Made by a program: the position numbers and the translations under genes
Source of the DNA: Saprospiraceae bacterium
GTDB lineage: Bacteria; Bacteroidota; Bacteroidia; Chitinophagales; Saprospiraceae
DNA length: 53,032 nt
NCBI GenBank assembly: GCA_029263015.1
Contig: JAJCYI010000137.1
Location: forward strand, 1-53,032
Direction: 5' to 3'
In this document: piece after piece, positions 2,051-25,701 of the stretch
How the letters are laid out: each line of letters begins with the position of its first letter
Position numbering within the stretch: the first letter of the stretch is position 1
Notes under the pieces: model-generated
What the model saw: only the letters and a program-made list of their open reading frames with translations
Database searches by the model: none
What the model was told of the DNA's origin: nothing

Positions 2051-3922
2051 TCACCTCAACCCAGCCACTTCCTTTTGCACCATATCTACCACCTGGCCTA
2101 CCTCTGCTTTCGGCAAATAAATATAGTGCGCGCCCAGCCAGCTTGCCAGTTCCCTGCCTGTGAGGTTTGCAATTGGTGACCGCCGGGTATCGAATAAAAC
2201 GCTGGCATCCAGCTCTTTCTTCAGCACCTTGCAAATAGGCTTCAGTTCTTTGGTCGCAAGTGTCTCTGGGTCGGGATGGCCAGCAATTGGATTGAGGGGT
2301 TGGTTGGCCCTGCCGTCGGTGAATAGCACCAGCACAGTGCCTGCTGTTTTTCGGTTGGAACGTGCTTGTTTCGCCAGTTGTAAAGTCTTTAGCATTGCCG
2401 CACCGATCGGGGTCTTTCCACCTGCCGGGATGCGCTTTAAAGTGCGCGAAGCGCGGGCCATGCTACTGCCTGGGGGCAATAGCAATTTCGCCTCCTTGTG
2501 CCGGAAATAGATGATGGCCACTTGGTCGCGAAATACATAAGCCTTTTCTAAAAGGGAAAGCGCCGCACCTTTGGCCGCCCGGTAATGGTTGATCGCCATC
2601 GAACCAGATCCGTCAATGGCAAAAATGAACAGCAGGCCGCTACGTTGTCGGAATTGTTTTATGCGGAAATTTTCTTTTTTTATGAAAACCCCATCTTCCA
2701 TTTTTTCTTTGGGAAACGAAAGTGCCGCCGCTTTTAATGTCGCCAAAATATCCACCCTGCCCTGCCCTGGTTTACCAGGCATGGAACGCACATGCCTGCC
2801 ACGCCGAAGATTTAGTCCAGACAAATGTTTGCCGCTTTTTCTCGCCGTTTTGGCCTTTCCTGAAAGAGTGGGCAGTTCCACTTGCTTGGCGACTTCCGGG
2901 CCAAGGTCGGGCAGGTCTTTTGAAAGTTGACCTTTCCGTTCGTCGCCCGTACCCTCGCTTTTGGGGCTAAGGTTTTTCCCTGTTTTTTTTCCCTGTTTTT
3001 CCTGCTGTGGACTTTTGGATTCATCTGGTCCCGGTTGCTCCGGCATATTCCCTGCAACACTTTTTTTGCGGGTGCTCTTTTCGGAAATATAGTCCGTTTC
3101 CAATTCTTCGTCACCCGGCATGGACATGGCGCCCATCCTGCCGAGATAGACCATCAATTTTGCCAAATCAACATCTTCCTGTGTGACCGGCACGCGTTGG
3201 TGCAATGCCGCATTTGCTTTGGCGCAGCGCACCGCCAATATTTCCATTCGGTTGCCCTCCACTCCCATTTGGGTGGCACTGCTGCACAATTCCTCCACTT
3301 GCTCCGGCCGCATTTCCACCAGCGGAAGTATCTCCCTCGCCCGCTGCACCCGGTAGATAACATCGGGTGGCATATCCATTTTTCGCCCAGCCTGATTGGC
3401 GAGAAAAACCCGCCACGACAAGTGGTTGAGAGTCTGTGTCCAAACCGAAAATGCGACCCGTCCAGACAGCGATTCTGGCAGTTCTGCCTCTTCTGGATTG
3501 AAAGTGCCAATGAGGGTAAATTTGGTGAGAAATATTTGGGAAATGCCCTCCCGTTCCAGTCGCACCTGCCCATCAAGGGATGCCTGTGTGATGGCATAAA
3601 GCAGTTCAGGCTGCAGCAGGTTTATTTCATCGACATATAAAACACCACCATTAGCCTCAGCGAGTAGGCCAGGCGAAGAGACAGCCTTTCCCATTTTATA
3701 GGAACGCTCCAAATCCACACCGCCAACCAGCCGCTCCAGCGAGCAACCCAGCGGCACATTCACAAATGGACTATTTTCAGGAAAAAGGCTTTTGGCCGCT
3801 CGGGCAATAGTCGTTTTTCCAGTGCCCGATGGACCTCCGATCAGCACGCCTTTCAGTCCTGGCTCGATGGCCGCAAGGGACAGCGCGATGAGGGGGTCTT
3901 TGAGGCCGGGGAAGGTGGTCAT
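2051..3922 (-). CDS. BchD-like AAA+/VWA protein (Mg-chelatase subunit D type)
   Basis: A 623-aa protein with an N-terminal AAA+ domain (Walker A GPSGTGKTT, Walker B VLYVDEINLL), a low-complexity Pro/Glu/Lys linker around residues 290-390, and a C-terminal von Willebrand A domain with the MIDAS motif DGSGSM. This is the architecture of the D subunit of magnesium and cobalt chelatases. Unlike many BchD proteins it keeps an intact P-loop. The BchI-like partner is at 5217-6242, with a DUF4143 gene between them. No large BchH/CobN subunit and no chlorophyll or corrin gene is present, so the substrate is unknown. A role as an ATP-driven metal insertase or chaperone for the sHdr region is speculation. 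Confidence 0.82.
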   Translation of the reverse strand: MTTFPGLKDPLIALSLAAIEPGLKGVLIGGPSGTGKTTIARAAKSLFPENSPFVNVPLGCSLERLVGGVDLERSYKMGKAVSSPGLLAEANGGVLYVDEINLLQPELLYAITQASLDGQVRLEREGISQIFLTKFTLIGTFNPEEAELPESLSGRVAFSVWTQTLNHLSWRVFLANQAGRKMDMPPDVIYRVQRAREILPLVEMRPEQVEELCSSATQMGVEGNRMEILAVRCAKANAALHQRVPVTQEDVDLAKLMVYLGRMGAMSMPGDEELETDYISEKSTRKKSVAGNMPEQPGPDESKSPQQEKQGKKTGKNLSPKSEGTGDERKGQLSKDLPDLGPEVAKQVELPTLSGKAKTARKSGKHLSGLNLRRGRHVRSMPGKPGQGRVDILATLKAAALSFPKEKMEDGVFIKKENFRIKQFRQRSGLLFIFAIDGSGSMAINHYRAAKGAALSLLEKAYVFRDQVAIIYFRHKEAKLLLPPGSSMARASRTLKRIPAGGKTPIGAAMLKTLQLAKQARSNRKTAGTVLVLFTDGRANQPLNPIAGHPDPETLATKELKPICKVLKKELDASVLFDTRRSPIANLTGRELASWLGAHYIYLPKAEVGQVVDMVQKEVAGLR

Positions 3923-3961
3923 GGATTTATTTTTATCATGAAGTCCTTTGAGGTAAGGCTC

Positions 3962-5092
3962 TTAGCTGATGAACCATTCAAAATTATCCTGCTCAATAAA
4001 CTGGAATTCACTATTGGGATAATTTTCCATGAATGCTTTAGGTGCTTTCTTTCTTTTAAATTTCCATTTCATTTCATATCCGGTCAGTTTCCCATTGAAT
4101 TCTTCGAGGTAATCAATTTCCTGTTGATCATGGGTTCTCCAGAAATAATTATTTGGATTGATTTGTTGGGTCTGGAGAAATTTCAGCCTCTCACAAATAA
4201 GAAAATTTTCCCATAACATCCCCTTGTCCATTCTCAATTCAACATCCTGATATTGTTGAATAATGCTATTCCTGACCCCGACATCATAGAAAAATATTTT
4301 ATATCCCTTGCTAATTTCTTTTCGCAGATTCCGGCTAAAAGAACGCAACCTGAATATAACAAAGGCTTTTTCCAACAAATCAATATACCTTTCTATGGTT
4401 CTCCGGTGGGTCTGTAAAGAATTGGACAATTCATTGACAGAAACCTCACTTCCTATTTGAAGAGCCAACAACTGAAGTAGTTTAAAGATAATATCTGCCC
4501 TTTTAAGATTTTCAAATTCCAAAACATCTTTGTACAAATACCTGCTGCTCAAATCATCCAATAGCACCCGTGCTTCTTCATCTGGAGCTTGTACAATTTC
4601 TGGATACATGCCAAACCTCAAAAAGTTGTTCAATTGCGCTTTCCGTTCAAACGGATTGTACAATTCTCCCACTTCCGAGTAGGATAATGGGTAAAGAATA
4701 AATTGTAATGCTCTCCCCGTCAAAGCTTCGCCCGTGCGGTTGGCTAAATCAAAACTGGAAGACCCCGTAGCTATGATCTGCAATTCAGGGTAAGTATCTG
4801 CTAACAACTTTAGGACACGTCCGATATTGGGAACATATTGAGCCTCATCAAAAACAACTATTTTTTTATTTCCAAGATATTTTTTTAAAAGGACTGGTTC
4901 CTCCTGTCCCAGAATTGCCCTAACCGATTGGATTTCACAATTGTAATATCCATCTTCCTGCCTGTATTTGGATAGCAATGCCTTGGCCAAAGTCGTTTTT
5001 CCCACTTGGCGTGCCCCATAAAGGATAATAACTTTTCCCCTAAATAACCAATTTTCTATGATGGGCTGGATCTTTCGCTTAATCAAATTCAT
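3962..5092 (-). CDS. AAA ATPase with DUF4143 C-terminal domain
   Basis: A 376-aa protein with Walker A GARQVGKTT, Walker B VVFDEAQ, a sensor-like ATGSSSFDL and the typical C-terminal DUF4143 end (YFWRTHDQQEIDYLEE). The family is common in Bacteroidota, often in many copies, and its function is unresolved. It lies between the bchI-like and bchD-like genes on the same strand and looks like an insertion into what would otherwise be an I-D pair. A second, diverged member is at 50841-52154. Upstream (5093-5216) is AT-rich with no recognised signal. Confidence 0.88.
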   Translation of the reverse strand: MNLIKRKIQPIIENWLFRGKVIILYGARQVGKTTLAKALLSKYRQEDGYYNCEIQSVRAILGQEEPVLLKKYLGNKKIVVFDEAQYVPNIGRVLKLLADTYPELQIIATGSSSFDLANRTGEALTGRALQFILYPLSYSEVGELYNPFERKAQLNNFLRFGMYPEIVQAPDEEARVLLDDLSSRYLYKDVLEFENLKRADIIFKLLQLLALQIGSEVSVNELSNSLQTHRRTIERYIDLLEKAFVIFRLRSFSRNLRKEISKGYKIFFYDVGVRNSIIQQYQDVELRMDKGMLWENFLICERLKFLQTQQINPNNYFWRTHDQQEIDYLEEFNGKLTGYEMKWKFKRKKAPKAFMENYPNSEFQFIEQDNFEWFIS

Positions 5093-5216
5093 ATAATTCG
5101 TGCATTTTGATGCACAAATTTACATAAATTAATGCACTTGAATATACATATTAAGAAAATCTCCTCGCCTTTTTATTTGGGTTGCTTTCAGTCTTAAACT
5201 ATTCAACATTTCACAT

Positions 5217-8859: not shown

Positions 8860-9783
8860 TTACAACTTCTCTGTCAGCGCAGGTACCACATCAAACAAAT
8901 CCTCGGTCGTGCCATAATCTGCATAATCAAAAATCGGTGCATTGGCATCGGTATTTATGGCAATGATGCAATCGGCATCTTTCATGCCCTCAATATGCTC
9001 CGGCGCACCGCTGATGCCAACAGCGATATATACTTTTGGTTTTACTTTCAAACCAGACTTGCCCACCTGACGTGTTTTGGGCAACCATTTGCTATCGACA
9101 ATAGGACGGGAGCAAGAAAGCGCGGCACCGAGTTTGTCGGCCAATACCTGCACCACTTCCATATTGTCCTCGTTCTGGATGCCACGTCCAACGCTCACTA
9201 ATACGTCCGTTGCGGTAATGTCCACATCCCCCCCTTCGGGTTCTATGAGTTGTTTGAATTTTATTTTCAAGCCGCTCAGGTCGGGTGCAGCTACTTCTTC
9301 CACCGCTGCGCCACTGCCCTTTCCAGCATCGACTGGGAATGACCCGGCCAATACGGAGGCAATAAAATCTCCCTCGACCGCTGATTCTACGCTCATTTTT
9401 CCACCATATAATTGGCTGGTCACACTGCCTTCAGAAACGTCGGAAGCATAAGCTATGAGCGGCATATTGCAATCAATGCTCAAGCCTGCAGCGATGTCCA
9501 TGCCCTGCGAAGTATTGCCCACCAAAACGATATTTGGGGTATGGCTGCCCACCAATGAAACAATTGTTTTGCAATATGCTTCGGGGTTGAAATTTGCCAA
9601 CTCCGGACTATCTACATATAAAACTTTATCAGCAGCAAAATCACTGGCCATGTCTTTTGCGCCGCTGCCAAGCAATACCGCTATGACATCGCCACCGAGG
9701 CTTTTTGCTTTACCCAGCATTTCATAAGTAATGTCCTCTACTTCGCCGTTTAAATGTTCGGCTATTACAAATATCTTACTCAT
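8860..9783 (-). CDS. etfA: Electron transfer flavoprotein alpha subunit
   Basis: A 307-aa EtfA-type protein. The N-terminal half is the ETF fold. The C-terminal FAD-binding half has the family motifs VSVGRGIQ, ASCSRP-like LSCSRPIVD, GQVG-like RQVGKSG, YIAVGISGAPEH and IIAINTDANAPIF. It would bind FAD with EtfB and carry electrons in the cytosol. It follows etfB after a palindromic heptamer spacer, and precedes the membrane EMO. In this cluster the electron donor is most likely the sHdr complex or its oxidised LbpA product rather than an acyl-CoA dehydrogenase; that is inference from context. Confidence 0.93.
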   Translation of the reverse strand: MSKIFVIAEHLNGEVEDITYEMLGKAKSLGGDVIAVLLGSGAKDMASDFAADKVLYVDSPELANFNPEAYCKTIVSLVGSHTPNIVLVGNTSQGMDIAAGLSIDCNMPLIAYASDVSEGSVTSQLYGGKMSVESAVEGDFIASVLAGSFPVDAGKGSGAAVEEVAAPDLSGLKIKFKQLIEPEGGDVDITATDVLVSVGRGIQNEDNMEVVQVLADKLGAALSCSRPIVDSKWLPKTRQVGKSGLKVKPKVYIAVGISGAPEHIEGMKDADCIIAINTDANAPIFDYADYGTTEDLFDVVPALTEKL

Positions 9784-9784
9784 A

Positions 9785-9893
9785 ATTAATTATAAATGCA
9801 AAATGATAAATAATAAATGTAAAAGTGAAAGCCACTTACTTTGTCTTATTTTTATATTTATTATTTATCATTTAATATTTTACATTAGATCAG
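9785..9893. repeat. Inverted heptamer array between etfB and etfA
   Basis: Left arm aaatgca-aaatgat-aaataat-aaatgta; the right arm is its approximate complement (tattatttatcattt...acatt). Both arms have a 7-bp period. Confidence 0.75.
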
Positions 9894-10645
9894 ATTTTCC
9901 CTTTAATAATATCCGCCAGTTTCCCTGCCACATCTTCCGCCGACCCGCTCAACATTTCCGCTCCTCCCCCACTCTCTGGCTTGAACATACGGCTGACTGA
10001 AGAACCCGCAGAAACACTTACGTCGCCCGCCGATACTTCTTCCAAATCGGTGGAACGCATCGCCCGACGGACTTTTGCAACTGGCACATATCGCGGCGTT
10101 TCCCTTGCAGCCTGAATACCCAAAACAATAGGAGTGGCAGCCTCAAACTCGGCTACCATGCCGCCGCCGTACTCTTTGGTGACATTTACACTGTCACCAT
10201 TTACGGCAACACCGGTCACGACGCTGATGTGCGGCACATTCATATAATGTGCCAGCAAAACGCCCAACTGTCCGTCTCGATCTTCCACCGACTGCACACC
10301 CGTAAATACCAAATCGGCGCCCATGCCCTGAATGGCATTTGCAAAAGCTTTGGCCGCTTCATGATTAGAGACGTTACCTTCTATCCCAGTCACTTTCACT
10401 ACTTTATCCGCTCCTTTTGCAGCAGCTGCATATAGGGCTTTGTCAATATCGTCGCCGTCCAATGCGATGGCGGTAACAGTGCCTCCACTGTCTTCTTTCA
10501 ACAAAAGTGCTTCTTCCAAAGCATGGTCGTCAAATTCATTGACTTTAAATTTGAGCCACTCCCGGTCAAGGTCTTTTCCCGAAGAATCTATTTCCAGTTC
10601 TTCGACCAAATCGGGCACTTGTTTGATTGGTACTATGATGTTCAT
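9890..10645 (-). CDS. etfB: Electron transfer flavoprotein beta subunit
   Basis: A 251-aa EtfB-type protein starting MNIIVPIKQVPD, which is the normal family N-terminus; the longer frame upstream only translates the heptamer array. Family features are the NEFDDHALEEAL segment, TGVQSVEDRDGQ near the nucleotide site and PRYVPVAKVRRA. It pairs with EtfA (8860-9783). EtfAB genes are reported in one of the two known kinds of sHdr cluster, where they are thought to accept electrons. It lies directly downstream of a LipS-type gene on the same strand. Confidence 0.93.
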   Translation of the reverse strand: MNIIVPIKQVPDLVEELEIDSSGKDLDREWLKFKVNEFDDHALEEALLLKEDSGGTVTAIALDGDDIDKALYAAAAKGADKVVKVTGIEGNVSNHEAAKAFANAIQGMGADLVFTGVQSVEDRDGQLGVLLAHYMNVPHISVVTGVAVNGDSVNVTKEYGGGMVAEFEAATPIVLGIQAARETPRYVPVAKVRRAMRSTDLEEVSAGDVSVSAGSSVSRMFKPESGGGAEMLSGSAEDVAGKLADIIKGKI

Positions 10646-10760
10646 ATTTAATTTAAAATTTAAAATGATAAATTTAAAATGCAAAAGTAACAGCCCGTTC
10701 TTAAGAACTATGAAAAAATAAATTTACAATTTTGACTGTTTCTTTTGCCCTTATTTTTTA
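10645..10760. repeat. Heptamer-periodic spacer between lipS-like gene and etfB
   Basis: Repeats of ttaaaat and gataaat with a 7-bp period at 10645-10690, and a weaker complementary arm at 10718-10760. Confidence 0.6.
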
Positions 10761-11846
10761 CATTACCAATTTCTCCAATTCCAGCTCTTGCCGTATCAGC
10801 ACCAAATCATCCGTGGCAGGAAGGAATGGAAAATCTCGGTGCGACTCACTCGGACGATAACTACCATAAGGACGAGTACAGCCAGGCTCGCCGTTTTCGC
10901 CTGGGCAACCATTGGTCATAAATGGTACGCCACCGTCAAGGGTTTTTAATACCTTATTTATTTTGGAGGCAAAAATTCCCAAGCCGACTATATTTTCTTC
11001 TTCGTTAAATTTAATGCTCTTGCGCTCCAATCCATATTCTTCGATTAAATGTTTGACCAATTGAATACGCCGCCAGCGTTTGATTTTTGATTTTGGATAA
11101 TTCCCCATGCGGGAGTCGGGTTCGGGATTAAAACAAAATAAATATGCGAGGATTTGTTTTTCTTTTAAATCATAAAACATATCCACCATCTCCATGTCTG
11201 TTTCGCCGAGGCCGACAACGGTATGGATGTTTACTTTCCATGGGCCATATATTTCACGGGAATAATTAATAACATCCCAATAATTTTTCCATTTCAAACC
11301 TCCCTGCGGAACGTTGGTTCGTCGATCAAAAAATAAATTTTCGGTAATGGCATCCAAGCCTACGCCGATCATGTCTGCCCCCAAATCCTTAAGGGCTTGC
11401 AGGCGTTCCCTATTTAATGTAGGTGGTGCGACCAAGAGAGAAAGTGGCGTTTTCACATTTTTGCAAATCTTCTCTGTTATTTCATAAGTGTCCTTATATG
11501 CCGAGCCATGTGTTACCATAGAAATGCAAAGACGGGTCATTTTATCTTCGTATTTCACCATACGGTCAATAACCAAATCCGTTTCGTACATTGGCCAGTC
11601 CACCCGAATAAAGGATTTGTCTTCATAATCGCCGGGACGGGTGCGAGCCAAGCCACAATAGGCACAATCAGAAAGGCAGCCGTTGTCGTAATTCAACAAA
11701 ATATTAATGCCTCCAAATTCAAAGTCTCTGGTAAAACGCCCCGACTGCAAACGCAGCGCCATTGCGCTTGCAGCACTCAGCCGAATAAATTCGGGGCTTT
11801 CTTTTTTTTGCTCAACAGGAGTTAAAGTTGGTAAAGGGAAATCCAT
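10758..11846 (-). CDS. BioB-like radical SAM enzyme, LipS1/LipS2-type lipoyl synthase component
   Basis: A 362-aa radical SAM protein with the cluster motif C57-x3-C61-x2-C64 (CLSDCAYC), as in biotin synthase relatives. A C-terminal pair of cysteines lies in NGCPGENGEPGC. The start MDFPLPTL at 11844-11846 is chosen because the upstream extension is heptamer repeat. The known LipS1/LipS2 pair inserts the two sulfurs into octanoyl groups on LbpA and replaces LipA. A second radical SAM gene (14235-15224), two lipoate ligases and two LbpA genes nearby support that role. Which of the two is LipS1 cannot be decided here. It lies downstream of the second lipoate ligase. Confidence 0.78.
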   Translation of the reverse strand: MDFPLPTLTPVEQKKESPEFIRLSAASAMALRLQSGRFTRDFEFGGINILLNYDNGCLSDCAYCGLARTRPGDYEDKSFIRVDWPMYETDLVIDRMVKYEDKMTRLCISMVTHGSAYKDTYEITEKICKNVKTPLSLLVAPPTLNRERLQALKDLGADMIGVGLDAITENLFFDRRTNVPQGGLKWKNYWDVINYSREIYGPWKVNIHTVVGLGETDMEMVDMFYDLKEKQILAYLFCFNPEPDSRMGNYPKSKIKRWRRIQLVKHLIEEYGLERKSIKFNEEENIVGLGIFASKINKVLKTLDGGVPFMTNGCPGENGEPGCTRPYGSYRPSESHRDFPFLPATDDLVLIRQELELEKLVM

Positions 11847-11847: not shown

Positions 11848-11990
11848 TTTTTATTAAATGTAAAATGCAAAATATTAAATGATAAATTCAAAAGTGCCGC
11901 TCCTGCCCAATCAAAAATATTTTCCCACGCATTGTCGTCCACTTTTACATTTTATATTTATCATTTATTATTTTACATTTATTTCTTTGG
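11848..11990. repeat. Inverted heptamer array between lpl-2 and lipS-like gene
   Basis: Left arm aaatgta-aaatgca-aaatatt-aaatgat (11855-11890) and right complementary arm 11942-11983, both of 7-bp period, about 50 bp apart. Confidence 0.75.
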
Positions 11991-13089
11991 GATAATAGCA
12001 CGACCCCTGATAATTATGTTTAACTTCTTTCATTGCCCCCATTGCCGCTCGCCAAATTGAATCGAAAATTTCTTTATCAGTCAGGTCAATGTTATTAGTA
12101 TTAAATTTTAAAAATGCTTTTCGAACCACTTGCATAATTTTTTCTTTATCCAGCGGACTCCATTTTAATTGTGCTTCGATATTTTTAAATAGGTTTTCAT
12201 GTTCCGTAAAATCGCCCGTAATCAGTACGCTTTTAATCGTTTCCCCTTTCAGGGCAACATAAGTTCGCAATAAACCCGCAGCCGTTTTCTTCAAGCCCAT
12301 TCCCGTCATATCAGACTGGGGGGAGTTTTGGAAAATCCAATCATCGTTGCGGTATCGTGCATTCACCAGTTTTTTAATTTCTGTTTTTTCAGAATCAGTA
12401 ATTGATTTTTCGGTCAACTGAATATTAAAATATTTTTCAAAATTATCTGCTACTATTTGCCGAACTTCCTCAGCAGTTATATTCCGTTTTAATTCTCTCG
12501 AAATAGTTGTGATACGTTGCTCGACTTTATGGATTTGTTTTTTGTCACCGATTTTTTGGAGGGGAATATTTAATACTTTTAGCATCACCGGAATATCCAA
12601 ATCGACAAGCAAACTGGTATGGAATTGAATCGCTCCATGTGGATTGACGTGAATGCCGAGCCCAGCGATTTTTTTTCCATTTACCACCAAATCATTTTTC
12701 CCCTGAAAGCCCGCTTTTATTCCCAGCTGCTCCAACGCCTTTAAAACAGGAGTCGAAAATATATGGTACAATTCTCTCGTATTTTCCGAATCAAAAGTAT
12801 TTGCCGTGGCAAGGCATAAACCCAATTGACCCTCGCCCATAATTATCGCGCCTCCCCCTGTGAGTCGCCGTCCATATTGAAAACCAGATTTGCGGATAGC
12901 TTCCAAATCAAGTTCTGCATGTATGTTCTGAAAGCGGCCAACGAGGGTGCAATAATTTTTATAGGTATATAAGCGTAAGGTTGCTTCCGAACTTGTTTTG
13001 TCGGAATAGGTATCCATTAAAAACTCGTCGGTGGCCAAGCCGTGGTCGGCAGTGACGTTGTCTTCTTTTATGTAGTGCCAATTGGTCAT
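11968..13089 (-). CDS. Lipoate-protein ligase, second copy
   Basis: A 373-aa LplA-family protein. It would activate lipoate or octanoate with ATP and attach it to a lysine of a lipoyl domain. Motifs: RRLTGGGAIIM for the substrate pocket and NGKKIAGLG carrying the family lysine. It also has a C-terminal accessory domain (from about residue 260). It is only distantly similar to the ligase at 23434-24504, so the two may serve different LbpA proteins or different steps. It sits between the YeeE/YedE genes and a LipS-type radical SAM gene, which ties it to LbpA maturation. Confidence 0.88.
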   Translation of the reverse strand: MTNWHYIKEDNVTADHGLATDEFLMDTYSDKTSSEATLRLYTYKNYCTLVGRFQNIHAELDLEAIRKSGFQYGRRLTGGGAIIMGEGQLGLCLATANTFDSENTRELYHIFSTPVLKALEQLGIKAGFQGKNDLVVNGKKIAGLGIHVNPHGAIQFHTSLLVDLDIPVMLKVLNIPLQKIGDKKQIHKVEQRITTISRELKRNITAEEVRQIVADNFEKYFNIQLTEKSITDSEKTEIKKLVNARYRNDDWIFQNSPQSDMTGMGLKKTAAGLLRTYVALKGETIKSVLITGDFTEHENLFKNIEAQLKWSPLDKEKIMQVVRKAFLKFNTNNIDLTDKEIFDSIWRAAMGAMKEVKHNYQGSCYYPKEINVK

Positions 13090-13104: not shown

Positions 13105-13512
13105 TCAATGAGGTAACTTGCCCCGGAAATATCCATATAAAAAAGTACCGGTCATGGCAGCCAGCAGGAACACGATCAGCACGGTGTAGCCGCTCCCCAA
13201 TAAAATGAACATAGGCCCAGGGCATATCCCCGCCAGTGCCCAACCAAGTCCAAAAATAAACCCGCCAAAAATGTAGCGTTTCCAATTCGTGTCTTTGTCT
13301 TGAATGGTAATTTCTTTTCCTTCCAATGATTTCAAGTGAACCTTTTTGATGAATTGAACCACGATGATGCCGATGGCAATAGCAGACAAGATGATTCCAT
13401 ACATGTGGAAGGATTGGAAATGGAACATTTCGTAAATCCTGAACCACGAAATAGCCTCTGACTTGTATAGCGTGATACCAAAAAGAATTCCCACGATAAT
13501 ATATCTTGACAT
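13105..13512 (-). CDS. YeeE/YedE-type membrane protein, second half
   Basis: An approximately 135-aa membrane protein with about four hydrophobic segments and the family motif GLGWALAGICPGP, whose cysteine is the conserved sulfur-handling residue of YeeE/YedE (sulf_transp) proteins. ATGs at 13510-13512 and 13516-13518 are both possible starts; the longer frame is unlikely. Split two-gene YeeE/YedE systems occur in many bacteria, with the partner here at 13614-14210. Members of the family import thiosulfate or other sulfur compounds. Placement inside an sHdr cluster supports import of the substrate sulfur. Confidence 0.85.
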   Translation of the reverse strand: MSRYIIVGILFGITLYKSEAISWFRIYEMFHFQSFHMYGIILSAIAIGIIVVQFIKKVHLKSLEGKEITIQDKDTNWKRYIFGGFIFGLGWALAGICPGPMFILLGSGYTVLIVFLLAAMTGTFLYGYFRGKLPH

Positions 13513-15766: not shown

Positions 15767-17026
15767 TCAAAGCGCTTCCTCGATCAATTCCACAATGTCT
15801 TTCACTAAAAGTTTACCCTCATTGCCAGTTGATTTGACCGCATCCTCAAATCGGGAAACTTCATACGGGCAGCAAATTGCCAGCACATCCGCACCTGTTG
15901 CAACTGCCTCCCGCACCCTGTTTTCAGAAAGGCGTTCGCTCACGTGGTCGGCCATGAAGCCATCCAGCCACATGCCGCCACCGCCACCGCCACAGCAAAA
16001 ACTTTGTTCTCGGCAACGTCCCATTTCAATCAGTTCAATGCCAGGAATTGCGGTGAGGCAATTTCTTGGTGCATCAAATTCGCCATTGTGCCTACCGAGG
16101 TAACAGGGATCATGGAATGTGACTTTATAATCCAGTTTTTTTGTAAAAGTTAATTTCTCCATTAATGGCGCGAGATAAGTAGTATAATGGATGGTCTCGA
16201 ATTTACCACCATGTTTTGGATATTCCTTGCGGAAAGCATTGAGGGCATGGGGGTCGGTGACCAATACTTTTTTGACTTTATATTTATTGAAAAGGCCAAT
16301 ATTGTGCTCGGCAAATTCTTCAAAAAGTCCCGTCTCGCCAGCCAATCTTTGGGAGTCGCAAGAACATTTCTCCTCCGCTCCCAATATGCCGTAATCTGTC
16401 CCCAATAATTTAAATATACGGGCGAGGGCACGGGTAGCATCTTTCCCCCTCCCATGATATGCCGGATAACATTCGACAAACCAGAGTAAATCCACGGGGC
16501 GTTTTATTTCTTTCATAATCGGCACTTCCACACCAGCGTCTTTTACCCAGTCTGCCCGCTTGCGCTGCGACTCGCCCATGGGGTTTCCATATTCAAAAGT
16601 ATTTTCAAAAACCTCTTGCAGTTCGTCTGGAACGTTGCCTTCCATGACGGCCTCTTCCCGTACTGCTGGCATTATTTTTATCATGTCCACTTCTTTGGGA
16701 CATACACGCAGGCAATTCATGCAAGTGGTACATTTCCAAAGATCATCATCCGTAAATAGGTCAAGCCCCAACTGGAGCTTGCGGAATATTTTCTGGGGGC
16801 CATATTCGCCAACTTGGTCAACGGGACATACGGGAATGCACTGCCCACATTGGTAACACCAGCCCATGGACTCTGCCCCAGCTAAATCGGTCACCTTGTC
16901 CAAGCCATCGGTATCATAATCGAAAATGACCCGTTGTTCGAACATCCGGTTCCAGTTCGCCGATAGCTCGATGCCTTCGACCGTGACCGATTCTTTTTCT
17001 ATGATTTGCGATTTATCTACTGGCAT
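15767..17026 (-). CDS. Fused sHdrC2-B2-like heterodisulfide reductase subunit
   Basis: A 419-aa soluble protein starting MPVDKSQ; the longer frame is heptamer repeat. Residues 57-67 and 99-109 are two [4Fe-4S] motifs (GWCYQCGQCIPVCP, KCTTCMNCLRVCP), the HdrC part. The HdrB/HdrD-like CCG part follows. Its first motif is atypical (C186, KCSCD at 221-223). The second is complete: C308 in DPCYLG, C344-C345 in FCCGGGG and CCP at 385. In described type I sHdr clusters hdrC2 and hdrB2 are separate genes; here they form one frame. It lies between Hyp and LbpA-2. It could also be viewed as the HdrB3-like subunit of type II clusters. It is paralogous to the soluble half of EMO. Confidence 0.86.
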   Translation of the reverse strand: MPVDKSQIIEKESVTVEGIELSANWNRMFEQRVIFDYDTDGLDKVTDLAGAESMGWCYQCGQCIPVCPVDQVGEYGPQKIFRKLQLGLDLFTDDDLWKCTTCMNCLRVCPKEVDMIKIMPAVREEAVMEGNVPDELQEVFENTFEYGNPMGESQRKRADWVKDAGVEVPIMKEIKRPVDLLWFVECYPAYHGRGKDATRALARIFKLLGTDYGILGAEEKCSCDSQRLAGETGLFEEFAEHNIGLFNKYKVKKVLVTDPHALNAFRKEYPKHGGKFETIHYTTYLAPLMEKLTFTKKLDYKVTFHDPCYLGRHNGEFDAPRNCLTAIPGIELIEMGRCREQSFCCGGGGGGMWLDGFMADHVSERLSENRVREAVATGADVLAICCPYEVSRFEDAVKSTGNEGKLLVKDIVELIEEAL

Positions 17027-17029: not shown

Positions 17030-17165
17030 AGTTAAAAATGTAAAATGCAAAATGATAAATGTAAAATCTAAAAATGGCAGCACCTATTCGATTTAGAAAC
17101 CTTACTTCGTACGATGAAGCCTCGTTTTACATTTATTATTTATCATTTGATATTTTAAATTTAAT
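17030..17165. repeat. Inverted heptamer array between hyp and hdrC2B2
   Basis: Left arm aaatgta-aaatgca-aaatgat-aaatgta-aaatcta (17036-17072) and right arm its approximate complement (17127-17163), 7-bp period in both. Confidence 0.78.
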
Positions 17166-17904
17166 TTTTCCGGTTTATTCTTATTTCATAAACGCCCAAA
17201 ATCCGGCTGGAAAATTCCGCCACATTTGGCATTACTTGGTTAAATTCCTGCGTCATGCGCATCCGCAAAACGGTATATGCATATATCACATAAACACAGC
17301 TCAAATAAACATTGGTGCCAAACAAATTTCGGCTAATGGTCTGAAACCCAGCCGCTTTCCCAACCTCGTGTACAAAGGCAACTGCTTTCCCAACATTCAG
17401 ATATGATTGGCCCACAGTTGGAGCACTTAAATCAAAATCTTCGGTGGTGACCAAAGGGAGGGAGCCAGTATTTAATTTCGGGTTCCACATCCAATGACAC
17501 CATAGCCAATATTTGTCGGGGAAAGTATAATGCAGTAATTCCCCAGCGAGATCATATCGGAGATGTTCAGGAAGACTTTCCACCCGTTCGCAAAATACCT
17601 GAAAACGGATATGGACGGCATCGCTTCCGTAAAGCAATTCTTGGATATGCTTTTTGAAATTATCAATGCCTACTTCCTCAAGCAATTTTTTTATATTCCG
17701 TTTGGTGGAAAATATAAGCCGAAAGGTTTCCTGCAATTCTATTTCCGAAAGCCGCGCAATATTTTCTTGCCCAAACCTTTGTTTGAACCTTCCACTTTTC
17801 ACCACCAAGGCATCGGCGATTTTCACAAGGTGCTTCTCCTCGATCTTTTCCAAGGTTTCCTTCATGAATTCCTTGGCGGTTTCGGTGTCGACTATTTGGC
17901 TCAA
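17161..17904 (-). CDS. Conserved unknown protein of the sHdr cluster (Hyp position)
   Basis: A 247-aa protein without a recognised catalytic motif. It lies exactly where described sHdr clusters (C1-B1-A-hyp-C2-B2) carry the gene simply called hyp, and it is of a similar size, as far as I recall. It is mostly helical in appearance, charged in the first third, with a tryptophan-rich patch (DKYWLWCHWMWNP, about residues 129-141) and a moderately hydrophobic stretch near residues 190-215. No signal peptide. Downstream spacing to hdrC2B2 is a heptamer palindrome. Functionally it may be a structural subunit of the complex; this is inferred only from synteny. Confidence 0.7.
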   Translation of the reverse strand: MSQIVDTETAKEFMKETLEKIEEKHLVKIADALVVKSGRFKQRFGQENIARLSEIELQETFRLIFSTKRNIKKLLEEVGIDNFKKHIQELLYGSDAVHIRFQVFCERVESLPEHLRYDLAGELLHYTFPDKYWLWCHWMWNPKLNTGSLPLVTTEDFDLSAPTVGQSYLNVGKAVAFVHEVGKAAGFQTISRNLFGTNVYLSCVYVIYAYTVLRMRMTQEFNQVMPNVAEFSSRILGVYEIRINRKN

Positions 17905-17999: not shown

Positions 18000-19061
18000 C
18001 TAAGCCAGTACCGGCTGGGATTTCCTAACCGAAGCAAGCGCCTTCATGGCCGCCAAGCCCGCTGCCGAAACCGAGTCTTCCAAATCAGCCGGGCCCGTGC
18101 ATGCGCCTGCGGCAAATACCCCCGGCACATTGGTCGAAACGGTATCCAATGGCCCGCCTGTTGTTTCAATGAAATTATATTTGTTTTGCTTCAGGCCAAA
18201 ATATTCGGCCATCAGTTTGGTGCCTTCGCTCGGTTCCATACCTACCGCCAAAATGACCATGTCCATCTCGACTTCCATTGGTCGGCGCATCGTGGTGTCT
18301 TCGCCCTTCACCAAGAGTTTGTCGCCTCTTTTGACAATCTCGGTGGCCATTCCTTTTACATAATTGACTTTGTATTTTTCCTGAGCCGGCCAATAGATTT
18401 CATTCTCCCAATAACCGTACATCCGCATGTCAATATAAAAAATAAAAACCTTGCAACCAGGCACTTGCTGGCGTACTTCGATGGCCTGTTTGGAGGAAAT
18501 ACCGCAGCACACTTTGGAGCAATATTCGTTGCCAATCTGGCGGTCACGAGAACCGACACATTGGATGAAACAGATGCGTTTAGGTACTTCGCCGTTGGAA
18601 GGGCGCACGAATTTATGAGCCTTGAGCAACTTCTCCGCATCCGTCAAAGTAAGCACATCGTCATGCTCGTAATAGCCATATTTTTGGGTCTCCCGCCCTG
18701 GGTCAAAATGCGTAAAACCAGTAGCAACAATGACTGCGCCCGCCTCCATTTCTACCTCTTTTCCTGCAGATATAGCTTTTACCTTGAAATTGCCCGCTGA
18801 GCCGGAAGCGCCCGTGACAAGTGTATTATAACGGATGTCAACATTTGGGTTGTTGAGCATGGGCGCCATCATTTCATCAAGCGCCTCTTGGGTGTCCCTC
18901 AAGTCTGGCGTCAAAGCAGCGTACTGTTGTTCATCTGGATTGCCGCCGAGACGGTCCCTTTTTTCAACGAGGATGGCTTTGTAGCCCAAATCGGCAATGC
19001 CCTTGGCGGCTTCGATTCCTGCTACGCCCCCGCCGATGATTAGGATGTTTTGGTTTGCCAT
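18000..19061 (-). CDS. hdrA: sHdrA-like heterodisulfide reductase flavoprotein
   Basis: A 353-aa FAD protein, the short form typical of sHdrA and without the extra ferredoxin domains of methanogen HdrA. N-terminal Rossmann motif GGGVAGIEAAKG (10-21); a second ATG motif IVATGFTHFDPG (111-122); an Fe-S motif C164, C168, then C181-x3-C185-C186 (EYCSKVCC); and a C-terminal FAD motif GVFAAGACTGP. In the sHdr complex it is the flavin subunit linking the two HdrB/C arms. It lies between hdrB1 and Hyp, on the same strand. Confidence 0.92.
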   Translation of the reverse strand: MANQNILIIGGGVAGIEAAKGIADLGYKAILVEKRDRLGGNPDEQQYAALTPDLRDTQEALDEMMAPMLNNPNVDIRYNTLVTGASGSAGNFKVKAISAGKEVEMEAGAVIVATGFTHFDPGRETQKYGYYEHDDVLTLTDAEKLLKAHKFVRPSNGEVPKRICFIQCVGSRDRQIGNEYCSKVCCGISSKQAIEVRQQVPGCKVFIFYIDMRMYGYWENEIYWPAQEKYKVNYVKGMATEIVKRGDKLLVKGEDTTMRRPMEVEMDMVILAVGMEPSEGTKLMAEYFGLKQNKYNFIETTGGPLDTVSTNVPGVFAAGACTGPADLEDSVSAAGLAAMKALASVRKSQPVLA

Positions 19062-19204: not shown

Positions 19205-20392
19205 TTATTTCGCAGCATCTTCCCAAGTCATGTAATCCTTTTCACCTGACTTGATTTTGTCGCATTCAGCTTGAAATTCTGCCCACTTCTTTTCTACGTC
19301 AATGCCTATTTTTTCCATGAAGGGCTTGTTGTTGGTATTGTGCCAATGCAGCTGCAATACTTTGTAAGGGTGCGCACCCATCGCCAAAGCGGCCATTTGT
19401 GAATCTGACATTACAGGCAGCCCGACCTGTTTGTCATGTGCCTTGCCTACCACTTGGCTTTGGTCGAGGGTCGTTACGCAACCTGTGTCATGGGTTACTG
19501 TAACATCGGGGTTGGCTTCTTTTATCATCACCTCGATTTTGCGCTGCACCGAAAAGGAACGAGAGAAATCCCTCGATACCAAAATATGCCTGAACCCAAA
19601 ACCGCAGCAGTCGAACCAAGTGGAATAATCGGCCACATTGATGCCCAGTTTTTCCAGCACCCCGGTAATAATGGCAGTGCGCTGTGCGCCGTATATTTCT
19701 TCGTTATATATGGCGTCTTCCTCAATCAGTTTATGGTAATGACAAGCAGGATGAACCGTGGCGGTAATGTTGCTCATATCAATCACCTGCCTTTCGGCAA
19801 TACGGTCACGCATCGCATAGACCCATTCGCTGTAATGCACCACCTCTTCTGGGAGCACCAGTTTTTTGCCCAACCGCTTCATAATGTCCCTTACTTTCCT
19901 ACGCAAATCGTGCTGGTGTATCAACGCATGGCGCACTTCTTTGTAATGCCCGAAACTGGTGCCGCAATGGATGAGCGGAAAATAACCAACCTCTTCTGCT
20001 GCTGCAAAATTTCGAACAGCAACGGCAGCTTGTGCTTCTGGGTTGGAAGTTGCAGAGGCGTAGTAATTCCACGCGGTACAAGAAGTCTGGTCGGTCGGGT
20101 CAAAGTAATCCAGGCCAAAAGCCCTGTTCAACCAAAAAATGGAAGTGGAGTAGCCAGGAATATGGCCACATTGTCCACAACTTTTGTGGTGCCAAGTCTT
20201 TTCGAGCGGGATTTTTTTCATCCTGCCATATTTGGTCCTGACTTCCATATATGGCTCCGGCACTCTTATGACCTCCAACTCTCCTTCTTTTTCCAGTTGG
20301 AAAAGTTCTTCCCGCATATCGTGCGTTGGAGCCTCATCAGGATTTGCTTTGAAAATCCGTTCGCTTGCTTTGGATACTGGTAGGTGTATCAT
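19205..20392 (-). CDS. hdrB1: sHdrB1-like heterodisulfide reductase subunit
   Basis: A 395-aa soluble protein with two CCG-type halves. Cysteines 72, 75, 105 and 143 lie in the first (HKSCGQCGH, TSCTAW, IHCGTS). The second has HPACHYH (C217), DCCGFGF (C262-263) and HDTGCVTTLD (C305), where the usual last CxxC is reduced to one cysteine. The pattern agrees with an HdrB subunit binding a non-cubane [4Fe-4S] site, with a modified second site. It lies upstream of hdrA. A four-helix-bundle gene separates it from hdrC1, which is unusual because C1 and B1 are adjacent in described clusters. Confidence 0.9.
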   Translation of the reverse strand: MIHLPVSKASERIFKANPDEAPTHDMREELFQLEKEGELEVIRVPEPYMEVRTKYGRMKKIPLEKTWHHKSCGQCGHIPGYSTSIFWLNRAFGLDYFDPTDQTSCTAWNYYASATSNPEAQAAVAVRNFAAAEEVGYFPLIHCGTSFGHYKEVRHALIHQHDLRRKVRDIMKRLGKKLVLPEEVVHYSEWVYAMRDRIAERQVIDMSNITATVHPACHYHKLIEEDAIYNEEIYGAQRTAIITGVLEKLGINVADYSTWFDCCGFGFRHILVSRDFSRSFSVQRKIEVMIKEANPDVTVTHDTGCVTTLDQSQVVGKAHDKQVGLPVMSDSQMAALAMGAHPYKVLQLHWHNTNNKPFMEKIGIDVEKKWAEFQAECDKIKSGEKDYMTWEDAAK

Positions 20393-20396: not shown

Positions 20397-20530
20397 ATTA
20401 ATTAAAAATTAAAAATGATAAATTAAAAATTAAAAAACGCCACGAAAGGAAAGTCGGAAAACCAGCAACTCATGTCTGTTTTTTAGAAATTTATCATTTT
20501 AAAATAATCACGTATCAATTAAATTTATCA
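20397..20530. repeat. Heptamer-periodic spacer between the four-helix protein gene and hdrB1
   Basis: aattaaa-aattaaa-aatgata-aattaaa-aattaaa at 20398-20436 with a 7-bp period; an AT-rich arm follows at 20484-20528. Confidence 0.65.
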
Positions 20531-20914
20531 GGAATTTTTATTTCTGATGTTATTTTCAATTCTATTTTTAGTTGATTTTGAAATGGTTGTAAAAATGGCA
20601 ACCAATTCCCCACATTCTTGCAAAACAGGGTTAACGATTTTTCCTTCTAAAAAAGGTTTTCGTTCAATTATTTTTAAGCAAATCTGACTTTCCCGTAATT
20701 CTTTGAGGCAAACCTTTATTTTATGTAAAAAATCGGAGTCCGACTCTGCTGCTTGTGCTTCGCCATAATTCAATGCGGGCGATGTTCCCGACCTATTAAG
20801 TTGGCCACCAAGATTTTTTGCAGCAGGTTTATTGGGTAATTGTTCAACTAACTCAAGAACCATCACGGCAAAATTGATTAACCTGTCTTCGAGATTGTAA
20901 TTCCGTTTTCCCAA
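20528..20914 (-). CDS. Four-helix-bundle protein (S23/IVP family)
   Basis: A 128-aa helical protein with the family segments YNLEDRLINFAVMVLELVEQLP, NRSGTSPALNYGEAQAAES and LKELRESQICLKII. These identify the four-helix-bundle family first seen in 23S rRNA intervening sequences; the Avd proteins of diversity-generating retroelements are related. The start is probably the TTG at 20912-20914: no ATG lies between an in-frame stop and this codon. Stand-alone members are common in Bacteroidota and have no agreed function. Here it splits hdrC1 from hdrB1 and keeps their strand. Confidence 0.85.
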   Translation of the reverse strand: MGKRNYNLEDRLINFAVMVLELVEQLPNKPAAKNLGGQLNRSGTSPALNYGEAQAAESDSDFLHKIKVCLKELRESQICLKIIERKPFLEGKIVNPVLQECGELVAIFTTISKSTKNRIENNIRNKNS

Positions 20915-22329: not shown

Positions 22330-22477
22330 AATATATAATGATGAATGCTTTTAAATGTAGAATATAAAATGATAAAAAATAAATGTAAAAGTGTGCACAT
22401 TATGGCAACTGGATTCCAAATTTTTAATGTGCCGTCCATTTTTAAATTTTAGATTTATCATTTTACATTTAATTTTA
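22330..22477. repeat. Inverted heptamer array between dsrE-2 and lbpA1
   Basis: aaatgta-gaatata-aaatgat-aaaaaat-aaatgta-aaagtgt (22352-22393) against tttttaaattttagatttatcattttacattt (22439-22470). Confidence 0.72.
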
Positions 22478-22855
22478 AAAATACATGACATGGTCATAAT
22501 CCAATGCCAGGTCAATAATACTGGTGGCCCCAAGTATGCCAACGCCATCTATTAAATCGTCGGGCGTCATGTCCCAAAGGGTCAGGCTTTGTTGGCAAAC
22601 GCGTAGCTCTACTTCATTGTCCATTGCCATTTCCAGCATTGATTTTAAAGTAACACCACTGCCTTTCACTAATTCAACTTTTTCCGCTTCGCCTTTTTTT
22701 AGTTGGTTGGTACCGTTCATCGTGAACCAGACCATCACTTCCATTTCCATGGCAGCAGCAGCAACAGCATAATAAAGCGGCGAGTAAGTGCGGGTTGGCG
22801 TATCTACGCCGTGGGTTTGAATGACAAGGATTTTTTTGCCTTCGTGGTCGTCCAT
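22475..22855 (-). CDS. DsrE-family sulfur carrier, second copy
   Basis: A 126-aa DsrE/DsrF-fold protein. A hydrophobic first strand (KKILVIQTHG), an alanine-rich helix (YYAVAAAAMEMEV) and a cysteine at 87 (ELRVCQQSLTLWDM) match the position of the persulfide-carrying cysteine in this family. It is shorter than and quite different from the DsrE-like protein at 24565-25077. sHdr clusters usually carry DsrE3-type proteins that take sulfur from TusA. Location next to lbpA-1 fits delivery of sulfur to the lipoyl carrier, but the partner is not proven. Confidence 0.85.
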   Translation of the reverse strand: MDDHEGKKILVIQTHGVDTPTRTYSPLYYAVAAAAMEMEVMVWFTMNGTNQLKKGEAEKVELVKGSGVTLKSMLEMAMDNEVELRVCQQSLTLWDMTPDDLIDGVGILGATSIIDLALDYDHVMYF

Positions 22856-22994: not shown

Positions 22995-23249
22995 TTAAAA
23001 CAACTCGCATTCTTTTCCGGGGTCTGAATAAACGAAAATATAATTTTTGTCCCAAGTCCAATCTTCCACTTCGTCCATTAAAAAATCATATAGTTCATCT
23101 TTATTTTTTGCGTATTTTAGCAATCTTAATTTTTTCGCCCTACCCTGTTCGTTGGTTTCTAATATTTCCAATAATAGCCATTCGTTGGGCTTGCTGGAGT
23201 AAAGCAGTGCCATTTCTGAGGCAAAATATTCTTTTTTTTCGTCATGCAC
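22995..23249 (-). CDS. Small protein of unknown function in the sHdr cluster
   Basis: An 84-aa acidic protein (MHDEKKEYF...) that I do not recognise. It has two tryptophan-containing segments (SKPNEWLLLEIL and VEDWTWDKNYIFVY) and ends in KECELF with a single cysteine. It has no signal peptide or membrane segment. It lies between a palindromic element and dsrE-2 on the cluster strand, with normal spacing, which supports a real gene. Similar length and the pattern of strands and helices would suit a small soluble adaptor, but that is a guess. Confidence 0.6.
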   Translation of the reverse strand: MHDEKKEYFASEMALLYSSKPNEWLLLEILETNEQGRAKKLRLLKYAKNKDELYDFLMDEVEDWTWDKNYIFVYSDPGKECELF

Positions 23250-23273
23250 TTTTCTTTTTTTTAATGCTTGACA

Positions 23274-25077: not shown

Positions 25078-25079
25078 GA

Positions 25080-25313
25080 TTAATGTGTTTTTTTAATGGT
25101 GAACCGAAATACATTGTCGCCTTCATCTTTGGCTTCAATCAGTTCGTGGCCCGTCTGTTTTGCCCAAGCGTGCATGTCCGGCATAGAACCTGGATCGGTA
25201 GAAAGCATCTCCAAAACGTCTCCGATTTCCATTGCTTTGAGGGCTTTTCTTGTCTTTACCACAGGCATTGGGCAAAGCATCCCAGAACAATCCAATGTTT
25301 TAACTTCTGCCAT
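25080..25313 (-). CDS. tusA: TusA-family sulfur carrier
   Basis: A 77-aa protein starting MAEVKTLDCSGM, with the TusA motif CPMPVVKTRKAL; the persulfide cysteine is C14, with another at C9. The longer frame upstream is not needed. TusA carries sulfane sulfur and feeds DsrE and sHdr in this type of pathway. It lies between the ArsR gene and dsrE-1, so it is first in the metabolic run. Confidence 0.93.
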   Translation of the reverse strand: MAEVKTLDCSGMLCPMPVVKTRKALKAMEIGDVLEMLSTDPGSMPDMHAWAKQTGHELIEAKDEGDNVFRFTIKKTH

Positions 25314-25380
25314 GTTCGATTTAATATTTAAGAAATGAATGATATAATTTATCGGCCTCAGTAGTCGAGGTTGGGGATTT

Positions 25381-25701
25381 TCAAAAAATGTCACATTTTT
25401 CCATGCAGTCGAATATCTTGGTAATTTCGTCAAAGGCCAATCGGTAATAAATATTCCGGCCTTCCCTGAAAGAATTCAAGACTCCTTTGTCTTTCATCTT
25501 GGTTAGGTGATGGGACAGCAAAGATTGTTCGATTTCGATCTGTTCAAGAATTTGCGCAACCGATTGTGGCTGTCTTTCTTCGAGCAATTCAATGATTTCC
25601 AAGCGTAATGGATGCGAAATCGCTTTCAGGATGTGCGCCATTTTTTCCAGTTTTGCCCCGTCAATATTCCTGGTACTTATCTTTGTTTTTATGGTCATCA
25701 T
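25381..25701 (-). CDS. ArsR-family transcriptional regulator, likely of the sHdr cluster
   Basis: A 106-aa winged-helix protein with HPLRLEIIELL, the recognition region SLLSHHLTKMKDKGVL and wing REGRNIYYRL. It carries cysteines only at the C-terminus (C99 and C103, CMEKC), a layout that could sense redox or sulfur state. Known regulators of sHdr/Sox genes (SoxR, sHdrR) are ArsR proteins that use cysteines, though at other positions. It is the first gene of the minus-strand run and has a dyad (ATGAA-N6-TTCAT) at 25720-25735, 19 bp upstream, fitting autorepression. Two ATGs at its start make the exact N-terminus uncertain. Confidence 0.88.
   Translation of the reverse strand: MMTIKTKISTRNIDGAKLEKMAHILKAISHPLRLEIIELLEERQPQSVAQILEQIEIEQSLLSHHLTKMKDKGVLNSFREGRNIYYRLAFDEITKIFDCMEKCDIF

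What the first reader, a model, noticed from the sequence alone, without database searches (positions are those of the whole stretch)
2051..25701. Near-complete sHdr-LbpA sulfur-oxidation cluster in a Bacteroidota genome
The minus-strand run carries hdrC1, hdrB1, hdrA, hyp, a fused hdrC2-B2, two lbpA, two lipoate ligases, two LipS-type radical SAM genes, tusA, two dsrE, two YeeE/YedE halves, etfAB and emo. The sHdr pathway is mainly described from Proteobacteria, Aquificae, Actinobacteria and archaea, and I do not know of a characterised Bacteroidota case. Sulfur entry, carrier maturation, oxidation and electron exit are all encoded together, which would make this bacterium a likely thiosulfate or sulfane-sulfur oxidiser.
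Basis: partly seen in the sequence, partly recalled or inferred. Interest (0 to 1): 0.92.

Follow-up and report, generated by a model that had tools for sequence, protein, structure and literature searches.

The report
Sulfur-oxidation gene cluster in Saprospiraceae
A Saprospiraceae (Bacteroidota) genome carries a nearly complete type II sHdr-LbpA gene cluster, the machinery other microbes use to oxidise sulfur inside the cell, together with extra conserved parts that hint at a separate assembly line for its lipoic-acid cofactor.

Summary
The minus strand of 6426-25701 encodes arsR, tusA, dsrE2-like, a lipoate ligase, an 84-aa protein, dsrE, lbpA, hdrC1, hdrB1, hdrA, hyp, a fused hdrC2-B2 (hdrB3), a second lipoyl carrier, lipS1, a second ligase, lipS2, etfBA and emo. 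This meets the published definition of a type II sHdr cluster. HdrB1 relatives are in 9 of 150 same-family genomes (own included), and the contig is host-like, so contamination is unlikely and the case is not unique.

Corrections: 2051-6314 is not part of it. The YeeE pair is in none of 82 related loci, so a conserved sulfur-entry step is not shown. SoxY was not found in the 9 sHdr-positive family genomes, so thiosulfate use is unsupported; a sulfide:quinone oxidoreductase points to sulfide-derived sulfane sulfur.

New details: the second carrier ("LbpX") keeps the lipoylated lysine but lacks both LbpA cysteines; LbpX-type genes sit beside lipS1 or the second ligase in 30 of 32 loci. The 84-aa protein has one invariant cysteine near its C-terminus (22 of 22). 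The ArsR ends in C-x3-C, unlike SoxR/sHdrR. I propose LbpX as the scaffold on which LipS1/S2 build lipoate (inference).

The parts
25381..25701 (-). ArsR/SmtB-type regulator with C-terminal C-x3-C (C99, C103)
   Evidence: HTH_5 45 bits, NF033788 76.2 bits; C-x3-C also in 13 of 13 Bacteroidota loci with an arsR match, and in none of the 9 other loci with one
25080..25313 (-). TusA-type sulfur carrier
   Evidence: PF01206 91.8 bits, the only match in the genome
24565..25077 (-). DsrE2-like sulfur carrier
   Evidence: NF047629 208.1 bits (cut-off 210), PF13686 171.6 bits
23434..24504 (-). lipoate-protein ligase LplA_1
   Evidence: PF21948 127 bits; on the other side of a 100% SH-aLRT branch from LplA_2
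22995..23249 (-). 84-aa protein without family, one invariant Cys (C81) near the C-terminus; candidate sulfur carrier (inference)
   Evidence: no Pfam match; Cys in 22 of 22; last residues of low confidence in the model; no solved fold match at E 0.001
22475..22855 (-). DsrE-type sulfurtransferase, one Cys (C87)
   Evidence: PF02635 66 bits
21856..22329 (-). LbpA: lipoate-binding protein with K73, C9 and C146
   Evidence: PF01597 122.8 bits
21030..21737 (-). sHdrC1
   Evidence: Fer4-type domains and HdrC families, below cut-offs; synteny
20528..20914 (-). 23S_rRNA_IVP-type gene, insertion, not part of the system
   Evidence: PF05635 46.9 bits; match in only 1 of 82 related loci, at another place
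19205..20392 (-). sHdrB1 (proposed catalytic subunit)
   Evidence: CCG domain, HdrB families below cut-off; 78-89% identical in 8 other family genomes
18000..19061 (-). sHdrA flavoprotein
   Evidence: best solved match 6tjr_A, 2.9e-85 over 5-346
17161..17904 (-). hyp, conserved all-helical subunit
   Evidence: in 76 of 82 loci; model pLDDT 89.6, no solved fold match at E 0.001
15767..17026 (-). sHdrB3 (fused HdrC2-HdrB2)
   Evidence: Fer4 plus CCG in one frame; 74 of 77 related ORFs at least 400 aa
15221..15691 (-). LbpX: second GcvH-like carrier, Lys kept, no Cys
   Evidence: PF01597 107.7 bits
14235..15224 (-). LipS1 lipoyl synthase
   Evidence: NF053742 224.3 bits, cut-off 230; 11 of 11 sHdr+ and 0 of 9 sHdr- genomes, 3 of the 11 over the cut-off
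13614..14210 (-). YeeE half (PmpA-like); lineage-specific insertion
   Evidence: PF04143 63.5 bits; 0 of 82 loci
13105..13518 (-). YeeE half (PmpB-like, DUF6691); lineage-specific insertion
   Evidence: PF04143 and PF20398, 49 bits each; 0 of 82 loci
11968..13089 (-). lipoate-protein ligase LplA_2, neighbour of LbpX/LipS
   Evidence: PF21948 147.1 bits; own side of a 100% branch
10758..11846 (-). LipS2 lipoyl synthase
   Evidence: NF053743 186.7 bits, cut-off 270
9890..10645 (-). EtfB
   Evidence: PF01012 83.1 bits; synteny
8860..9783 (-). EtfA
   Evidence: PF00766 111.2 bits, PF01012 101 bits
6426..8525 (-). EMO (EtfD-type ETF:menaquinone oxidoreductase: membrane part plus HdrD-like part)
   Evidence: CCG/Fer4, QmoC-like N-terminal part 50 bits, 9ojn_A 3.8e-81, five hydrophobic segments

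Best explanation
This is a type II sHdr-LbpA operon of a Saprospiraceae bacterium. Persulfide sulfur, most likely from sulfide through the genome's sulfide:quinone oxidoreductase, is handed over by TusA and DsrE-type carriers to lipoylated LbpA and the sHdr complex (C1-B1-A-hyp-B3). The sulfur is oxidised there to sulfite, and the electrons leave through EtfAB and the membrane protein EMO to menaquinone. LipS1/LipS2 and two ligases make the lipoate. Shown: gene content, order, conservation, host. Inferred: every reaction, its direction, the substrate, and menaquinone as acceptor. My proposal for the two carriers (inference): LplA_2 loads octanoate on LbpX, LipS1/S2 insert sulfur there, and LplA_1 supplies LbpA.
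For: All defining type II genes are syntenic (definition in passages of PMC11582611). HdrA is of the short sHdr form. LbpA has lysine and both cysteines. LipS1 is in 11 of 11 sHdr+ and 0 of 9 sHdr- genomes. GCV_H matches: three in 8 of 11 sHdr+ genomes (2 in G110 and G234, 4 with fragments in G142), exactly one in 9 of 9 sHdr-. Core tree: 21 Bacteroidota rows, the window among them, on one side of a 100% branch. A sulfide:quinone oxidoreductase elsewhere in the genome, 2.1e-103 to solved mitochondrial SQR. EMO matches a solved iron-sulfur reductase. SdhA on the same contig is 80-86% identical in 13 of 13 same-genus genomes.
Against: No experiment in any Bacteroidota is known to me. No sulfite-oxidising enzyme was found; only AprA was searched, 0 of 20, and it rang in no control, so it decides nothing. 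SoxY absent. Sulfur entry unexplained. LipS1/LipS2 score below curated cut-offs. No characterised type I/II proteins were in the trees. All LbpX together have only 76/66 support in the careful tree.
Confidence: 0.82

Rival explanations
1. (Not exclusive of the best explanation.) The cluster works mainly as a detoxification and electron-salvage route for sulfide-derived persulfide in a heterotroph, not as a growth-supporting lithotrophic pathway.
For: The SQR is of the mitochondrial type, recalled as often linked to detoxification; SoxY not found in 9 of 9 sHdr+ family genomes; patchy presence, 9 of 150 family genomes.
Against: EtfAB/EMO and the costly cofactor machinery suggest energy conservation; not testable by sequence.
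Confidence: 0.4
2. A methanogen- or sulfate-reducer-type Hdr that runs in the reducing direction (heterodisulfide or electron bifurcation).
For: HdrB1 and HdrC1 have their best NCBIfam matches in methanogen HdrB/HdrC.
Against: Those matches are far below cut-offs (121.7 of 450, 88 of 350 bits); HdrA lacks the extra domains and matches 6tjr best; linkage with LbpA, LipS, DsrE, TusA.
Confidence: 0.03
3. Contamination: the contig or operon belongs to another phylum and was binned wrongly.
For: Calditrichota-labelled clusters are 81% identical in HdrB1; the Bacteroidota label needs 3 changes on the tree.
Against: SdhA of the same contig is host-like; G+C 43.1% against 42.8% of the rest of the window; same cluster in other assemblies.
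Confidence: 0.03
4. (Concerns LbpX only.) LbpX is simply an LbpA that lost its cysteines and acts in the sHdr cycle, or an extra GcvH; it has no special part in lipoate assembly.
For: GcvH-like by sequence; all LbpX together weakly held (76/66); the Sulfobacillus Cys-free row has an LbpA-like lysine motif and matched LbpA best.
Against: Beside lipS1/LplA_2/lipS2 in 30 of 32 loci, also where this module lies apart from the hdr genes; LbpA and GcvH clades exclude it (100/99 each); the genome has its own GcvH.
Confidence: 0.5

Closest known systems
Type II sHdr-LbpA clusters (the Etf-linked 'group III' of eLife 2018, Actinobacteria and Firmicutes)
   Same: C1-B1-A-hyp-B3 with etfAB and lbpA in one cluster; eLife sections 5 and 6 read, type II definition in passages
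   Different: Ligases, LipS1/S2 and a cysteine-free carrier inside the same run; extra 84-aa Cys-tail protein; different ArsR; Bacteroidota host
sLpl(AB)-LipS1/S2 lipoate assembly of Hyphomicrobium denitrificans (PLoS Biol 2023, passages)
   Same: ligase plus LipS1/LipS2 linked to lbpA
   Different: two distinct ligase groups and an additional GcvH-like carrier
SoxR/sHdrR repressors (PMC10451225, passages)
   Same: ArsR type, next to the cluster
   Different: cysteines C99/C103, three residues between, instead of the C50/C116 layout
PmpAB/YeeE sulfur transporters (PMC11582611, passages)
   Same: two short YeeE-family halves with cysteines (not aligned to PmpAB)
   Different: not a conserved part of these clusters
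Glycine cleavage H protein
   Same: H-protein sequence family and lysine
   Different: LbpA and GcvH are separate clades; the ordinary GcvH is on contig C244

Membership tests
Type II sHdr system | shdrC1-B1-A-hyp-B3 and etfAB in one syntenic cluster | tested here: met
   window; definition; 60 of 82 related loci hold all seven
Type II sHdr system | HdrC2 and HdrB2 fused | tested here: met
   Fer4 and CCG in one frame
Type II sHdr system | tree position with experimentally studied type I/II proteins | not tested
   no characterised cluster was at hand; only related loci were in the tree
Type II sHdr system | sulfur-oxidising activity | not testable with these tools
   no culture or expression data
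LbpA (21856-22329) | conserved Lys and two conserved Cys | tested here: met
   K73, C9, C146. By best match there are 115 LbpA rows: 103 show all three; 8 are cut or gapped at a column; 2 have Phe for the second Cys; 2 have no Cys and were moved by me to LbpX
LbpA (15221-15691, LbpX) | two conserved Cys | tested here: not met
   0 of 31 rows assigned by best match have Cys at either column, nor the 2 moved rows; so not filed as LbpA
LipS1/LipS2 lipoyl synthases | score over the curated cut-off | tested here: inconclusive
   224.3 of 230 and 186.7 of 270 bits; best NCBIfam match in each case
SoxR/sHdrR | two Cys in the C50/C116 layout | tested here: not met
   only C99 and C103
Methanogen-type Hdr | over curated cut-offs; long HdrA | tested here: not met
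GcvH of glycine cleavage | in one clade with GcvH | tested here: not met
   careful tree of 20 GcvH, 28 LbpA, 29 LbpX rows: GcvH 100/99, LbpA 100/99, LbpX 76/66

The most novel reading that the evidence does not exclude
These clusters contain a dedicated lipoate assembly line: LbpX is a cysteine-free scaffold carrier on which LplA_2 and LipS1/S2 build lipoate, while LplA_1 serves the cysteine-bearing working carrier LbpA; and the 84-aa protein is a new sulfur carrier with a mobile C-terminal cysteine.
Probability: 0.3. Interest if true: 0.75.

Novelty: new variant of a known kind. Interest (0 to 1): 0.6.

Why it matters
It places intracellular sulfane-sulfur oxidation in Saprospiraceae and, by record titles, Cyclobacteriaceae and Flammeovirgaceae, groups usually seen as degraders of organic polymers (recalled), so their part in the sulfur cycle may be overlooked. 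The conserved extra parts give concrete candidates for two open points: how LbpA gets its lipoate, and which proteins pass sulfur to it.

Tried and rejected
YeeE pair as a conserved sulfur importer: rejected, 0 of 82 loci and no difference between sHdr+ and sHdr- genomes. Sox-dependent thiosulfate oxidation: of 20 genomes SoxY matched only in the two other-family ones, G154 and G234 (none of the 14 named controls rang either); SoxB and SoxA were not searched. AprA: 0 of 20, no control rang, inconclusive. Type I reference from plasmids: the three Acidithiobacillus plasmids carry an HdrB1-like gene, and in the one I opened it stands without hdrA or hdrC near a gcvH-like gene, so no type I reference was gained. 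Empty insertion site in sister genomes: the flanking aminotransferase gene matched only in G061 of three sister genomes, on another contig than its sHdr cluster, so no empty site was seen. Folds of hyp and the 84-aa protein: no solved match at E 0.001 or better. Rfam, gathering scores: nothing in the window. The quick tree gave LbpX 96%, the careful one only 76/66 after I dropped three long rows and kept 28 of the LbpA rows; I rely on the weaker value.

Rows dropped before counts: L001-L023, L025 and L027 as duplicates, fragments or adjoining stretches; for the carrier trees, rows under 95 or over 300 aa were left out and rows over 190 aa cut to their last 165 residues. The tool kept 80 of 290 confirmed loci, so taxon counts lean to close relatives. 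Gene labels in related loci are best matches to the window's own proteins, so label and clade are not independent.
Full report
What is there. The minus strand of 6426-25701 reads, in the direction of transcription, arsR, tusA, dsrE2-like, lplA_1, an 84-aa gene, dsrE, lbpA, hdrC1, (IVP insert), hdrB1, hdrA, hyp, hdrB3, lbpX, lipS1, two YeeE halves, lplA_2, lipS2, etfB, etfA, emo. With the ORF starts as first listed, gaps run from -4 to 184 bases, with one of 334.

Which kind. PMC11582611 (passages) defines type II by shdrC1B1AHB3 and etfAB in one cluster, B3 being the fused C2-B2. The window meets this. eLife 2018 (PMC6067878, sections 5 and 6 read) describes the Etf-linked arrangement as group III in Actinobacteria and Firmicutes. 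HdrA has the short form: best solved match 6tjr_A (349 aa; I recall it as the Hyphomicrobium sHdrA, deposited under a fumarate reductase name) over 5-346. EMO's HdrD-like part matches 9ojn_A, named 'Iron-sulfur-binding reductase', which I take to be a mycobacterial EtfD because of a paper seen only in a search listing (PMC13083937).

Host. The window is G000:C137 of a 6.95-Mb genome. Same-family genomes share contig lengths with records titled Saprospiraceae (e.g. 84478 and 57145 bases), the second of them in the window's genus; that the window's family is Saprospiraceae follows from this. SdhA on the same contig is 80-86% identical in 13 of 13 same-genus genomes and 70-81% in the other matches (26 of 30 genomes matched). 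G+C of the cluster is 43.1%, of the rest of the window 42.8%.

Distribution. HdrB1 at E 1e-20 or better, own genome counted: 9 of 150 in the family, 3 of 248 in the order, all in the family, 3 of 395 in the phylum, own plus two of another family. In named contigs 376 stretches matched the pattern, 290 were confirmed, the best 80 kept; by record title 24 Bacteroidota, 13 Chloroflexota, 9 Bacillota, 6 Planctomycetota, 6 Actinomycetota, 5 Thermomicrobiota, 4 Fidelibacterota, 2 Calditrichota, 1 Acidobacteriota and 10 without phylum (one search counts 12 without because it adds the unnamed L024 and L026). Of the 24 Bacteroidota loci 11 hold the full type II set; judged from the lengths the other 13 seem cut by contig or locus ends. 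On the core tree (window plus 81 loci, quick, LG+G4) 21 Bacteroidota rows including the window lie on one side of a branch (100%), near Calditrichota; the two other-family genomes fall with Fidelibacterota (100%), so the phylum holds at least two sHdr lineages. L057, labelled Bacteroidetes, is almost identical to a KSB1 record and may be mislabelled.

Two carriers. By best match to the window's proteins there are 115 LbpA and 31 LbpX rows, the window's included. Of the LbpA rows 103 show the lysine and both cysteines, 8 are cut or gapped at a column, 2 Chloroflexota rows have Phe for the second Cys, and 2 have no Cys (a fragment in L054 and a Sulfobacillus row in L073); because these two also stand beside lplA_2 I counted them with LbpX. 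All 31 LbpX rows keep the lysine and none has a Cys at either column; the same holds for the two moved rows, except that the fragment does not reach the lysine. eLife 2018 states that LbpA proteins other than some archaeal ones have both cysteines, so LbpX falls outside. LbpX lies within 1 kb of lipS1, lplA_2 or lipS2 in 30 of 32 loci; the other two, L031 and L079, end at that place. In Planctomycetota loci the run lbpX-lplA_2-lipS1-lipS2 lies apart from the hdr genes. LplA_1 (52 rows) and LplA_2 (30 rows) are the two sides of one branch (100%); the ligase lysine is in 50 of 52 and 30 of 30. LplA_2 stands next to lbpX or a lipS gene in 29 of 29 loci, LplA_1 in 2 of 51. In 20 genomes, sHdr-negative ones have exactly one GCV_H match (9 of 9); sHdr-positive ones have 2-4, three in 8 of 11. 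In the careful tree (20 GcvH, 28 LbpA, 29 LbpX rows) LbpA and GcvH are well held (100/99 each), so is a 19-row LbpX group with the window (100/99), but all LbpX together only 76/66; the EAEKH and EAAKM forms may be two groups.

Other conserved parts. The 84-aa protein occurs in 21 of 82 loci and the window; one Cys near the C-terminus is invariant in 22 of 22. The model has mean pLDDT 80 with a last block of 48 and no solved fold match at E 0.001. ArsR matches occur in 22 loci: the 13 Bacteroidota ones end in C-x3-C like the window's, the 9 others do not and may be unrelated regulators. SoxR, SqrR, BigR and sHdrR share C50/C116 (PMC10451225 passages).

Supply and fate of sulfur. SoxY: 0 of 9 sHdr+ family genomes, 2 of 2 other-family ones, 0 of 9 sHdr-. 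The genome has an SQR close to mitochondrial SQR at C72. Of ten ORFs scanned in a 15-kb stretch around it, apart from the SQR itself only a Disulph_isomer protein and one protein with weak cytochrome c matches might bear on sulfur or respiration. AprA search inconclusive. YeeE-family matches: 9 of 11 sHdr+ and 8 of 9 sHdr-.

In print? In the listings (two returned none) I saw no title or abstract start that reports sHdr in Bacteroidota, but I opened only nine papers, mostly by passages: PMC11582611, PMC10451225, PMC10332631, PMC12345210, PMC13384644, PMC6067878, and for the check PMC5549381, PMC8359478, PMC13029343. None reports it in the passages seen. PMC12345210 places its binned sHdr in Proteobacteria, with a search built on separate HdrC2 and HdrB2. 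PLoS Biol 2023 and Commun Biol 2024 screened GTDB species; their tables, which I could not read, may list Bacteroidota. So the cluster as such may be known as data; I saw no description of the LbpX pairing or of the 84-aa protein in what I read.

Noticed in passing
window 6224-23008, intergenic gaps: By my reading, 12 of 22 gaps between chlI and arsR hold AT-rich repeats built of heptads (AAATGNN and the reverse complement), several as facing pairs. A strict pattern gives 7 arrays in the window (5 in this run), 0 in 11 relatives' loci, 2 in 66.5 kb of other own-genome DNA, mean 0 in 50 local shuffles.
   Followed up: partly
window 2051-6314; L014; L012/L034: chlI- and chlD-like genes (Mg/cobalt chelatase subunits) beside emo here and in G041, upstream of arsR in G060.
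   Followed up: no
window 20528-20914; L037: 23S_rRNA_IVP-type gene inserted in the operon, at another place in L037.
   Followed up: no
L165 (NZ_CP040512.1): Three Acidithiobacillus ferrooxidans plasmids carry an HdrB1-like gene; in the one opened it lies near a gcvH-like gene among hemerythrin and globin genes.
   Followed up: no
L024, L026 (G154, G234): A second, distant Bacteroidota family has a different sHdr lineage, close to Fidelibacterota, and SoxY in both genomes.
   Followed up: partly
L057 and L058: Near-identical clusters under the labels Bacteroidetes and KSB1; probably one is mislabelled.
   Followed up: no
window 35460-37844: Caspase-domain (Peptidase_C14) plus TPR protein near a transposase gene at 32733-34094.
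   Followed up: no
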